NCBI GenBank assembly: GCA_023382675.1
Contig: JAHDWN010000003.1
Location: forward strand, 64,147 to 128,146
Direction of reading: 5' to 3'
From: Anaerolineae bacterium
Lineage (GTDB): Bacteria; Chloroflexota; Anaerolineae; Aggregatilineales; Phototrophicaceae
DNA length: 64,000 nucleotides
Below the pieces are notes generated by a model. That model saw only the letters and a list, made by a program, of their open reading frames with translations, searched no databases and had not been told where the DNA came from. Shown here one piece after another: positions 11,255-14,508 of the stretch. Positions within the stretch are counted from its first letter, which is position 1. Each line of letters begins with the position of its first letter. Both the position numbers and the translations under genes were made by a program.

Positions 11255-12490
11255 TCAGGAGGATGGCTCAATCGGTACAATCCAGTATTGGTCGCCTTCC
11301 CCATCCGCTGTCCAGCCAACATTTCCCTCGAAATCGACTTGCCACCATCGATGACTATCAGCGCATTCTGGTCCGCCAATTACTGAGAACTGTTCTCCAC
11401 TTTCAATATGGCCAATGACCTGTCCACTGAGTCCAGGTACCCGACGGAATCGATTTGGTGTGGTGCCTGGTGTGATCATTGCGCGCCCGCCTACAGCTAT
11501 GATTGCGGGTGGCGCACCGGCACAATCGGGAATAGTTGCAGTCGCTGCTGGTGTAGCAGTTGGTGCAACTATAGGACTAGGTGTCAGAGTTGGAGTTAAA
11601 AGCGCATCTGGTGACAAGAGAATTGTCTGCCCATTCAGAACCTCGGGCACCCAACCCTCAATGCCGCTGGTGGAACGCACCTGCCACCAGGGAACGTCAT
11701 CAACCAGCGTCGGTCCGCCGATGATTAGCAGACTGACGCCGCTCAGCGCAGCTTCGATGACTTGCGCGTTGGCATCGGCCTCCTCACGAATCAGAAGAAG
11801 CACACTGACACCCCCAACCAGTGCCTCGATACCGACCGCGAGTTCTCCACTGGCTGCCGCGTCGCTAATGAACGTAGGTACGCCATCGACTGATGTCTGC
11901 ACCCAACCCTCGATACCGCTGGGGGAGCGCACTGATGTCCAATTAACATCTGCACCGGAGACTGGCACTGTGAGGACTTCGAGCGCAACATCGCGCACGA
12001 CTGCCTCAACTACCGACGATTCGGTGTCCGGCTCATCATAGATGAGAAGCAAATCAACTGCGACAACAGCCGTGCCATCAATTGGATACGTAGCCCTCAC
12101 GGTGCGAACTGGCTCTCCTGTCTCCCCGCTGCGTGGCTCGTCAGATGTTCTCAGCGGCGTTCCATCGGCCAGAAGCAGCGTTGGTGTACTCTCCACGATC
12201 TCCAATACCCAGCCCATGGTGCTACTCGGCGGTGTCACCTGCCGCCATATAAGGCTATCGACCGTCTCGGTTGCTCCGGTCAGAATGAGGGCAACTCCAC
12301 CGCTGACGGCTTCACTGGCCGGGGCAGTGTCATCCGGCTCAGCGTAGATGAGGAGAAACGGTATTTCTGGATTGACGATCACCTCGACGCCTGTGAGATC
12401 GGTCGGATCATCCACCTGCGCGCTACTTACAAACGGCAGCGCGGACAGGCACACGATCAGCAGCAGAGAGGTTTGCCAACGGTTCACCAT
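11255..12490 (-). CDS. Secreted protein with four SH3b-like domains
   Basis: 411 residues. A signal peptide (Arg, then LLLIVCLSALPFVSSAQ) is followed by three similar ~85-residue modules (about 30-110, 130-215, 215-300). Each has an LLIY/LLIR-EE-D strand and ends in W-x-x-V-x-S-x-x-GIEGWV, the pattern of bacterial SH3 domains. A TPTLTPSP-type Pro/Thr linker leads to a fourth SH3b module at the C-terminus (WWQVDFEGNVGW). Such domains bind cell-wall or protein ligands outside the membrane. It is the last gene of a minus-strand trio with the PPC-like and TIR proteins, with a 26-base gap to the former. No enzymatic domain is seen. Confidence 0.78.
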   Translation of the reverse strand: MVNRWQTSLLLIVCLSALPFVSSAQVDDPTDLTGVEVIVNPEIPFLLIYAEPDDTAPASEAVSGGVALILTGATETVDSLIWRQVTPPSSTMGWVLEIVESTPTLLLADGTPLRTSDEPRSGETGEPVRTVRATYPIDGTAVVAVDLLLIYDEPDTESSVVEAVVRDVALEVLTVPVSGADVNWTSVRSPSGIEGWVQTSVDGVPTFISDAAASGELAVGIEALVGGVSVLLLIREEADANAQVIEAALSGVSLLIIGGPTLVDDVPWWQVRSTSGIEGWVPEVLNGQTILLSPDALLTPTLTPSPIVAPTATPAATATIPDCAGAPPAIIAVGGRAMITPGTTPNRFRRVPGLSGQVIGHIESGEQFSVIGGPECADSHRWWQVDFEGNVGWTADGEGDQYWIVPIEPSS

Positions 12491-12516
12491 GAGCAGCTCG
12501 TACCCCTGAGACCCGA

Positions 12517-13419
12517 CTATGGATTGAGCGACACGGTGATCTGGAAATTCGTACTTTCTGCATTAGGCGGTACATTGCCCATGCGGAATAGGCCGATCAC
12601 GTAGCTTCCTGCCTGTGGCAGCTCGATCTCGGTCGAGAACGTCGCTGCCGAGACTGGCCCGGCGATGAAGACGGGAACGTTCGGCTGTGCGAAGACCACG
12701 AAACCGACCCCAAGATTTCCGGATAACCGCCGTGCATTGATGCTAAGAATATCACCTTCGGTTGCCTCAATTGAAAAGCCCGATACGCCCGACCCTTGAG
12801 GAGACACTGTACTCGTTAGTGGGATGTCAAATGGCAGCCCGATGAGAGTGACGTCGGCGAAGTTGACAGGCGACACTCCAGGGTAGCCGATGCTGGGAAC
12901 TGCCAATACAGCTGTGTTTGTGCTGTCGCTCTGAGTTGTTTCTGTGTCGCTTGTCGAGCCTAGATTCTCACGAGTTGTGGGATCAATCGTCCGTCCTTCA
13001 CGATCCACACAGGTGATCGAAAGCGTATATTCTCCAACACCATTTTGCGTCGCTGAAGCAACATCAATTGCATATGTGCCAGAAGCAGATAATACACCAG
13101 AGGATGCTGCGGGAGCATCGTCAGGACTATAAGAGGCAGTATATCTCGCATCATAATCTGCGCCGGCTGAGCTGATAATTACATCTTCAGATGGAGAAAT
13201 GATCGCAAGAGCCATGCGCAGAAAATCACCGAATGCGATTGCATGCGGCTGGAGAATCTCGCCAGATCGCATTGATATCACATAGCGGTTCACCTGTCGA
13301 TTCTCGGTGAAGACGCCCTCTACAACGTCCCCGCATTGAACGGTCTGGCCCTGTGCAAGAGTTATCCCGAAGGAGGCGAAGAATGCGAGCAGAATAACCA
13401 CTGCGAGCAGCTTTTTCAT
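12517..13419 (-). CDS. Secreted beta-sandwich (PPC-like) protein
   Basis: 300 residues, with GAGG 7 bases before the ATG. Residues 1-22 are a signal peptide (KKLLAVVILLAFFASFGITLA). Two beta-sandwich repeats of pre-peptidase C-terminal type follow. The first (about 28-135) contains VEGVFTENRQVNRYVISMRSG and GTYAIDVAS..GVGEYTLSI. The second (about 185-300) contains ISINARRL and QAGSYVIGLFRMG. A Ser/Thr/Asp-rich spacer joins them. It lies 12 bases downstream of the TIR gene and 26 bases upstream of the SH3b gene, so the three are probably cotranscribed. It is likely an extracytoplasmic binding or structural partner. Confidence 0.72.
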   Translation of the reverse strand: MKKLLAVVILLAFFASFGITLAQGQTVQCGDVVEGVFTENRQVNRYVISMRSGEILQPHAIAFGDFLRMALAIISPSEDVIISSAGADYDARYTASYSPDDAPAASSGVLSASGTYAIDVASATQNGVGEYTLSITCVDREGRTIDPTTRENLGSTSDTETTQSDSTNTAVLAVPSIGYPGVSPVNFADVTLIGLPFDIPLTSTVSPQGSGVSGFSIEATEGDILSINARRLSGNLGVGFVVFAQPNVPVFIAGPVSAATFSTEIELPQAGSYVIGLFRMGNVPPNAESTNFQITVSLNP

Positions 13420-13431
13420 TGGTGTACCTCA

Positions 13432-14508
13432 CTATCCCTCTGGGCAAGTTGGCGACAATTCAAGATATTCGGCTGCAATCCAGCCGATGGTGCGACCATT
13501 GGATTGGATACGGTAGAAGACTTGTGCGCCTGCAGAGCGATCGATGACAAGTACCTGTTCACCGCGCCTAACACTGGCTATGGTCGTGCTGCTGTTTGGG
13601 CTTTGTCGCACGACGGTCAGGATACTCGCAGTTGCATATGGATCGACAGTAGCCTCGCATGGATAGCTTCTTGATTGAGGCATCACCGTTGGGGTCACAG
13701 ACACTGGCGTTGCAGTTGGAGAGGGTGTTGGCGTTTCCGTCTCAGTACTGGTCGGGGAAGCCGTGGGAATCTCCATTGGTGTCTCGGTGGAAGTGGGCGT
13801 CGATCTCGGCGGAACTGCCGTCTCCGTGGGCGTGGCCGTCGGAACGGGTGTATCGGTTGGTGTCGGACTGGGGGCAATAGTCGCTGTGGGTATGTCTGTA
13901 TCGGTGGCGCCAACTTGTGCTACAACAGTCGTCGGGATTGGGGTTTGCAGTGCAGCGAGTTCACGATCCCCGTTCGAATTGATGAGTGTCGCGGCGACGA
14001 TTACGAGTGCGCCAATGAGAACCGCACCGATGACCAAAGAGCCGGGCATGATTCGTGCTCGGTTGCTTCCGGTGCTGCGTGTTGGAGACATGGTCGAGTT
14101 GTGGATGATCTGTTCGAGCCGTTCTATCGCATCATCGACATACAGATTCTTTATGTCGAAGATATGTACCCCATCGTGCTGCAACAATGCTGCAACGTGT
14201 TCATTCGGGGCGCGGTCAGGTGGCACATAGTGCTCCTGGAACACAGGAATCATCGGTTTGCGCAAGTTATGCGCATGTTCGATTTCTTCCAGAACCCACT
14301 TGGATTGCAGCGTTGACTTGCCCAGAAGGCAGATGAAGACATCGCTATCCTCAATCGCTCTGCGCAGCCGATCAGGAAATAGTCCGCCCGCGTCACCGCT
14401 GCGGGTGTCTACATAAGCGTCTATACCTGACTGCTGCAAACTCGTGGCAACGAGAGTTGCCAGTGCCGCACTGTCTGCGCGGTGGTAAGAAATGAACGCC
14501 GATGCCAT
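13432..14508 (-). CDS. Membrane-anchored TIR protein with extracytoplasmic SH3b domain
   Basis: 358 residues from the ATG at 14508; a TTG at 14520 is an alternative start. Residues 3-135 form a TIR domain: AFISYHRADS (strand A), a DxFPDRL-type loop, DVFICLLGKST, and SKWVLEEIEHA with E75 at the place of the catalytic glutamate of NAD-cleaving TIR domains, then KPMIPVF. A single membrane helix spans about 156-176. Residues 190-280 are a long Pro/Thr/Glu linker, followed by a C-terminal SH3b domain (VRRGEQVLVIDRS..GRTIGWIAAEYL). The topology puts TIR inside and SH3b outside. It is the first gene of the trio with two secreted proteins. Known bacterial TIR proteins act in NAD depletion or signalling during phage defence, and such a role here is inference. 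Confidence 0.8.
   Translation of the reverse strand: MASAFISYHRADSAALATLVATSLQQSGIDAYVDTRSGDAGGLFPDRLRRAIEDSDVFICLLGKSTLQSKWVLEEIEHAHNLRKPMIPVFQEHYVPPDRAPNEHVAALLQHDGVHIFDIKNLYVDDAIERLEQIIHNSTMSPTRSTGSNRARIMPGSLVIGAVLIGALVIVAATLINSNGDRELAALQTPIPTTVVAQVGATDTDIPTATIAPSPTPTDTPVPTATPTETAVPPRSTPTSTETPMEIPTASPTSTETETPTPSPTATPVSVTPTVMPQSRSYPCEATVDPYATASILTVVRQSPNSSTTIASVRRGEQVLVIDRSAGAQVFYRIQSNGRTIGWIAAEYLELSPTCPEG

What the first reader, a model, noticed from the sequence alone, without database searches (positions are those of the whole stretch)
11255..14508. Three-gene TIR/SH3b cluster: inner TIR, outer SH3b, plus two secreted partners
The first gene encodes an N-terminal TIR domain with the catalytic-type glutamate (E75), a single membrane helix, a Pro/Thr linker and an outer SH3b domain. 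Two secreted proteins (PPC-like, and four SH3b) follow with gaps of 12-26 bases. This layout would let an envelope event be passed to an intracellular NAD-cleaving or signalling TIR domain. I know of no described defence or signalling system with exactly this composition. The cluster looks less GC-rich than its neighbours.
Basis: partly seen in the sequence, partly recalled or inferred. Interest (0 to 1): 0.65.

Follow-up and report, generated by a model that had tools for sequence, protein, structure and literature searches.

The report
Envelope receptor operon with swappable TIR
Three neighbouring genes in a Chloroflexota-like bacterium look like a cell-surface sensor wired through the membrane to a TIR (NAD-cleaving type) domain, and relatives keep the outer sensor while exchanging the inner signalling domain as a cassette, an arrangement for which I found no description.

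Summary
Window 14508-11255 (minus strand) encodes a TIR–TM–Pro/Thr–SH3b protein, a secreted tandem-PPC protein and a secreted four-SH3b protein, with gaps of 12 and 26 bp. The TIR glutamate E75 aligns with SARM1's catalytic glutamate, and the modelled fold is closest to SARM1's TIR.

The full trio, in the same order, recurs in another genome of the genus (G013) at a different site, and in G063. The real conserved unit is two genes: [inner domain]–TM–linker–SH3b ('YPC' type) plus the PPC gene. Of 24 loci with the YPC-SH3b domain in 154 genomes of the order, 21 have the PPC gene immediately downstream. The third gene is optional.

The inner domain is interchangeable: at least nine TIR classes (all keep the glutamate), DUF4062, a Ser/Thr kinase–TCAD9 fusion, or none. 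In one orthologous pair (uvrC 96% identical) the TIR region alone was replaced (33% protein identity; flanks 91-93%), with breakpoints in the 5′ leader and just before the membrane helix.

Best reading: an envelope-sensing receptor with plug-in outputs, here a TIR enzyme. Defence is possible but unproven: neighbours are core genes, not defence islands. New variant of a known kind; experimentally untested.

The parts
13432..14508 (-). Gene 1: receptor protein, TIR (res. ~1-120) - TM helix (158-176) - Pro/Thr linker - C-terminal SH3b of 'YPC' type (~284-351)
   Evidence: Pfam TIR_2, SH3_3; hydropathy; AF2 TIR and SH3b mostly at pLDDT about 90; SARM1 TIR best fold match, TM-score 0.79 over the target
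14284..14286 (-). Codon of E75, catalytic-type glutamate (WVLEE)
   Evidence: aligned with the SARM1 WVHKE motif; invariant in the 17-row alignment A3; a glutamate at this place in every TIR class of the family
13981..14037 (-). Membrane helix, residues 158-176
   Evidence: KD 2.93 over 19 residues, basic residues on the N-terminal side. AF2 left this segment at low confidence
12517..13419 (-). Gene 2: secreted protein of two PPC-like beta-sandwich domains, signal peptide at N-terminus
   Evidence: family alignment A1 of 21 sequences; AF2 and Foldseek; adjacent to gene 1 in nearly all relatives
11255..12490 (-). Gene 3: secreted protein of four SH3b repeats; present in only some relatives
   Evidence: Pfam SH3_3 E 1.7e-15, three stretches; four W..V..-GW motifs; orthologues in L028, L085, L089
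14541..14569 (-). Possible promoter upstream of gene 1 (TTGCCA-17-CATACT, TG before -10)
   Evidence: consensus scan only; number found in the region (5) is within chance (mean 2.9, sd 1.9)

Best explanation
The operon encodes a one-component envelope receptor and its outer partners. Gene 1 spans the membrane once: the SH3b domain outside contacts the wall or the secreted partners, and the TIR domain is inside. Gene 2 (tandem PPC) is the near-obligate outer partner; gene 3 (SH3b repeats) is an optional wall-binding accessory. When the outer assembly is disturbed (wall damage, phage or predator attack, or a released wall fragment), gene 1 proteins cluster. The TIR domains then associate and cleave NAD+, giving either a nucleotide signal or NAD+ loss. 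The outer module is a conserved sensor onto which different inner output domains are spliced, mostly TIR domains of many classes. Shown here: anatomy, conservation of the two-gene unit, domain exchange, retention of the catalytic-type glutamate. Inferred: wall sensing, clustering, NAD+ cleavage, and the biological purpose (defence slightly more likely than ordinary wall homeostasis).
For: Trio in the same order in G013 (40/39/45% identity) with unrelated flanks, and in G063. YPC-SH3b and PPC co-occur: 21 of 24 loci directly adjacent. Of the other three, one has a transposase-like ORF between the genes, one stops at a contig end with a PPC gene at the start of another contig, and one (DUF4062 type) lacks PPC. 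TIR-only replacement in G072 versus G062: TIR 33% aa identity (dS 1.35), TM-to-SH3b 93%, PPC 91%, uvrC 96% (dS 0.14-0.20), clean breakpoints. On the PPC tree four well-supported sister pairs (97/95 or better) differ in inner domain class. The glutamate is kept in all TIR classes. Other inner domains: DUF4062, Pkinase+TCAD9. The rest of gene 1 and PPC are under purifying selection, dN/dS 0.26-0.30. Link to peptidoglycan: one relative carries an M23 peptidase domain in the outer part.
Against: No biochemical evidence exists. The neighbours are not defence genes, so a defence role has no positional support. Some relatives have no inner domain at all, so the outer module can work without one. Bacterial SH3b domains bind many ligands, and peptidoglycan binding was not tested. 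Nearly all data come from fragmented assemblies.
Confidence: 0.55

Rival explanations
1. Anti-phage abortive-infection system: the outer module detects adsorption or wall breach by phage, and the TIR depletes NAD+ or makes a cyclic-ADPR-type signal. TIR cassettes are exchanged to escape phage inhibitors or signal sponges.
For: TIR close to NADase TIRs; glutamate kept in at least nine TIR classes; cassette exchange with a conserved sensor; patchy distribution and different genomic sites; TCAD9, a ternary-complex-associated domain, in one relative (ternary conflict systems are described in PMC7159879)
Against: Located among core genes (RNase J, GntR, uvrC, mraZ); no partner effector gene; PADLOC gives essentially only TIR-domain matches; outer module slow-evolving, not diversifying; no relative found on plasmids or viral contigs
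Confidence: 0.35
2. Cell-wall homeostasis receptor, comparable in role to PASTA-domain Ser/Thr kinases: it reports wall status, and the TIR makes a regulatory nucleotide. It is not an immune system.
For: A relative has a Ser/Thr kinase in place of TIR; an M23 peptidase domain in another; operon between uvrC and mraZ, head of the cell-wall cluster, in L086, L089, L097; purifying selection on the outer part
Against: Absent from most genomes of the order; frequent replacement or loss of the inner domain is unusual for a housekeeping pathway
Confidence: 0.3
3. The TIR is a non-enzymatic scaffold or assembly domain and the proteins are surface/adhesion proteins; domain variety reflects neutral shuffling.
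For: TIR-less, secreted forms exist (L085, L090, L155); TIR domains are abundant in this lineage (26 matches to gene 1 at E<=0.001 in the genome, most over the TIR)
Against: The glutamate is retained in every TIR class; the exchange point respects the TIR/membrane border
Confidence: 0.15

Closest known systems
SARM1 / TIR-1 (TIR NADases)
   Same: Closest TIR by sequence and modelled fold among solved structures; WxxxE motif with the catalytic glutamate
   Different: SARM1 has ARM and SAM domains, senses NMN/NAD in the cytosol, and is not a one-helix receptor with an SH3b outside
Thoeris (ThsB TIR + ThsA)
   Same: TIR domain related to ThsB models
   Different: Thoeris TIR is soluble and paired with ThsA; no ThsA-like gene here; hits cover the TIR only and are far under the ThcB4 equivalog cut-off, 50.6 against 220 bits
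Toll-like receptors
   Same: General layout: outer ligand-binding part, one membrane helix, inner TIR
   Different: No LRR ectodomain, reversed chain direction (TIR at the N-terminus), secreted partners in an operon; no evidence of common descent as a receptor
PASTA-type Ser/Thr receptor kinases (PknB/PrkC)
   Same: Working principle: inner enzyme, one helix, outer wall-binding modules; one relative here even has a Ser/Thr kinase as inner part
   Different: SH3b instead of PASTA, TIR instead of kinase in most members, PPC partner
Ternary/EAD conflict systems of multicellular bacteria (PMC7159879, PMC8195603)
   Same: Interchangeable effector domains including TIR; TCAD9 occurs in one relative of the operon
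   Different: No MoxR/vWA/STAND core next to the window's genes; single-pass receptor with secreted PPC partner. Passages on TIR, SH3, Chloroflexi and transmembrane in both papers were read; this composition was not among them

Membership tests
TIR domain NADases | TIR fold | tested here: met
   Pfam TIR_2 E 6.7e-18; AF2 model best match SARM1 TIR, TMt 0.79
TIR domain NADases | Catalytic glutamate in WxxxE | tested here: met
   W71xxxE75 aligned to SARM1; E75 invariant in alignment A3
TIR domain NADases | NAD+ cleavage | not testable with these tools
   needs an enzyme assay
Thoeris | Full-length ThsB/Thc family match | tested here: not met
   matches restricted to the TIR; ThcB4 50.6 bits against a cut-off of 220
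Thoeris | Adjacent ThsA or other effector gene | tested here: not met
   neighbours are RNase J and a GntR regulator; partners are PPC and SH3b proteins
Known PADLOC defence systems | Protein matches of the whole cluster | tested here: not met
   genes 2 and 3 have no PADLOC match; gene 1 matches other systems' TIR parts plus a weak hit over the low-complexity linker
Peptidoglycan-binding SH3b proteins | SH3b domain | tested here: met
   SH3_3 in genes 1 and 3
Peptidoglycan-binding SH3b proteins | Binding to cell wall | not testable with these tools
   needs a binding assay
PPC domain proteins (PF04151) | Pfam PPC above cut-off | tested here: not met
   no PPC hit for gene 2; a relative reaches 21.7 bits, cut-off 25.9
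PPC domain proteins (PF04151) | PPC / collagen-binding-domain fold | tested here: met
   AF2 model mean pLDDT 80.5; ColG tandem domain 5iku best match; single ColG/ColH domains at TMt 0.66-0.76

The most novel reading that the evidence does not exclude
A bacterial receptor family in which a conserved outer module (membrane helix, SH3b, PPC partner) is combined with a rapidly exchanged set of inner signalling domains (many TIR classes, DUF4062, Ser/Thr kinase). This would be an immune-receptor-like system in which the output, not the sensor, is the part that varies between close relatives.
Probability: 0.4. Interest if true: 0.87.

Novelty: new variant of a known kind. Interest (0 to 1): 0.7.

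Why it matters
Most studied bacterial TIR systems detect events inside the cell. A TIR on a single-pass receptor with dedicated outer partners would be a bacterial counterpart in layout to Toll-like receptors, and would show how an outside event can reach NAD+-based signalling. Cassette exchange of the TIR at a fixed locus between close relatives gives a natural experiment: the same sensor with different outputs.

Tried and rejected
(1) The trio as the minimal unit: rejected, since the SH3b-repeat gene is absent from many relatives while YPC-SH3b + PPC stay together. (2) Defence island: not supported; neighbours are core genes. (3) uvrC or a fixed neighbour as an operon member: uvrC adjoins the operon in 8 loci, but the window and G013 lack it and G022 has uvrC-mraZ without the operon at that site; it looks like a shared position, not a functional part. 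(4) Low GC as proof of recent transfer: weakened, because relatives in hosts of different GC also mostly show lower GC3 than a core gene. (5) Virus or plasmid carriage: no relatives found. (6) The genome-contig scan by peptide patterns found no relative; profile searches of whole genomes worked instead. (7) A second TIR fragment on the same contig (L003, 68% over 50 residues) was not confirmed: the + frame at the reported match reads as other sequence; not pursued. (8) The pairwise identity of L170's DUF4062 to L171 (57%) looks like an end-gap artefact and was ignored.

Full report
OBSERVATION. The window lies in a 6.4 Mb, 110-contig genome assembly (G000:C3:64147-128146). I infer a Chloroflexota lineage from protein style; no name is given. 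Three ORFs run on the minus strand at 14508-13432, 13419-12517 and 12490-11255, with gaps of 12 and 26 bp. RNase J lies 142 bp upstream on the same strand, and a GntR/UTRA regulator downstream, also on the minus strand. Co-transcription is likely from the spacing but not shown; promoter and terminator scans give no clear excess over chance.

ANATOMY. Gene 1 has TIR_2 (E 6.7e-18) and C-terminal SH3_3, with a hydrophobic helix at 158-176 preceded by basic residues, so TIR in and SH3b out is the expected topology. E75 in WVLEE aligns to the SARM1 catalytic motif. AF2 models the TIR and SH3b domains mostly at pLDDT around 90 and the membrane/linker part at low confidence. Foldseek's best PDB matches are SARM1 TIR structures, TM-score 0.79 over the target. 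Gene 2 is a secreted protein of two beta-sandwiches; its best fold match is the tandem collagen-binding (PPC-type) module of ColG. Gene 3 has a signal peptide and four SH3b repeats.

THE CONSERVED UNIT. A complete trio in the same order is present in G013, same genus, with 40/39/45% identity and no similar flanking genes, and another in G063 between uvrC and mraZ. A profile of gene 2 (A1) and a profile of the C-terminal SH3b of gene 1 (A2) were run over 154 genomes of the order. Of 24 loci with the SH3b domain (E <= 1.5e-11), 21 have the gene 2 family directly downstream. Of the other three, G047 has a transposase-like ORF between the genes, G049 ends 279 bp after the hit while a gene 2 relative starts another contig, and G035:C51 has none. 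Outside the order the unit is rare: one further genome among 400 of the phylum for gene 2 and three among 396 of the class for the SH3b; the four examined all have the pair. Gene 3 is present in the window, L028, L085, L088, L089 and L095 but not in many others.

INTERCHANGEABLE INNER DOMAIN. Gene 1 proteins share membrane helix, linker and SH3b but not the inner domain. Grouping TIR domains at 40% identity gives at least nine classes, all TIR_2 by Pfam, all with a glutamate at the catalytic place. Other members have DUF4062 (L170), a Ser/Thr kinase plus TCAD9 (L200), only a membrane helix (L099, L102, L192, L198), or a signal peptide instead (L085, L090, L155). On the maximum-likelihood tree of gene 2 the sister pairs L091/L093, L087/L088, L094/L097 and L101/L102 (support 97-100 / 95-100) differ in inner domain class, whereas the window and L028 (94/87) agree.

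THE TIR SWAP. G072 (L091) and G062 (L093) carry the operon at the same place next to uvrC. DNA identity is about 90-98% over most of uvrC, the 3' two-thirds of gene 1, and gene 2, but about 50% over the TIR-coding part. By protein: uvrC 96%, TM-to-SH3b 93%, PPC 91%, TIR 33%; dS 0.20, 0.14, 0.20 and 1.35. Breakpoints lie in the 5' leader and at ...LQIGRPRR, just before the helix; the frame stays open. The TIR of L091 is 97% identical to one in G026, whose copy sits next to an elongation-factor-type GTPase gene and ends ...AALNP*, as if a deletion had fused gene 1 to the last codons of gene 2. The L093 TIR is 62-64% identical to a separate ~470-aa TIR protein found in several genomes of the genus. 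A single assembly could be chimeric, but several independent pairs show the same pattern, which argues against artefact.

MECHANISM. Shown: architecture, operon-like spacing, conservation of the pair, modular inner domain, preserved glutamate, purifying selection on the outer part (dN/dS 0.26-0.30). Inferred: the outer SH3b/PPC assembly senses the wall or something acting on it, clusters gene 1, and the TIR cleaves NAD+. The kinase relative and an M23 peptidase relative favour a receptor of wall state. TIR chemistry and cassette exchange favour conflict. I give defence about 0.35, wall homeostasis 0.30, and a non-enzymatic role 0.15.

COMPARISON. Not Thoeris: no ThsA, and the full-length family score is not met. 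The layout resembles a Toll-like receptor or a PASTA kinase in principle, without membership of either. The two eLife surveys of conflict systems in multicellular bacteria describe interchangeable TIR-type effectors; the passages read do not mention this composition. Literature searches found no description, within the limits of an open-access library.

LIMITS. Most genomes are fragmented. My gene calls are simple ORF calls. Paper supplements were not searched. Identity-based TIR classes are approximate. Nothing here demonstrates enzymatic activity or a ligand.

Noticed in passing
G000 (own genome), e.g. C54:10210-10623, C32, C71, C48, C2, C16, C11: Gene 1 has 26 matches at E<=0.001 in the genome, most of them over the TIR domain; one with a similar TIR-TM start (L002/L045) has a different outer part, and L043 in G002 is its relative.
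   Followed up: partly
L031, L034, L105, L108, L116, L029: TIR domains closest to the window's TIR (roughly 45-60% identity) are often fused through a membrane helix to an outer domain that reads like a formylglycine-generating-enzyme/SUMF1 type, so TIR-membrane-outer fusions are broader than this operon.
   Followed up: partly
L087:4132-5537: In G022 the TIR and the membrane-SH3b part lie in two overlapping frames: either a frameshift or a true split gene.
   Followed up: no
L153:7845-9016: In G047 a transposase-like ORF sits between gene 1 and gene 2, and both genes are frame-broken; gene 1 also carries an M23 peptidase domain.
   Followed up: partly
L091/L095/L086/L158/L160/L181, region before the YPC-SH3b: A recurrent ~130-residue outer domain ('...LTIFRDEDSFTLYVP...FWYD...', no Pfam hit) is inserted in many gene 1 proteins but absent from the window's.
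   Followed up: no
L198:1063-1755 and L153:5767-6831: Two members have an N-terminal 'GKDVTTGRDFVGRDV' / 'GDKVVGDKVGGDKI' repeat-like motif in place of TIR.
   Followed up: no
L086, L089, L097 (uvrC-mraZ interval): The interval between uvrC and mraZ is a repeated site of this operon; G022 has the same interval without it (L164).
   Followed up: partly
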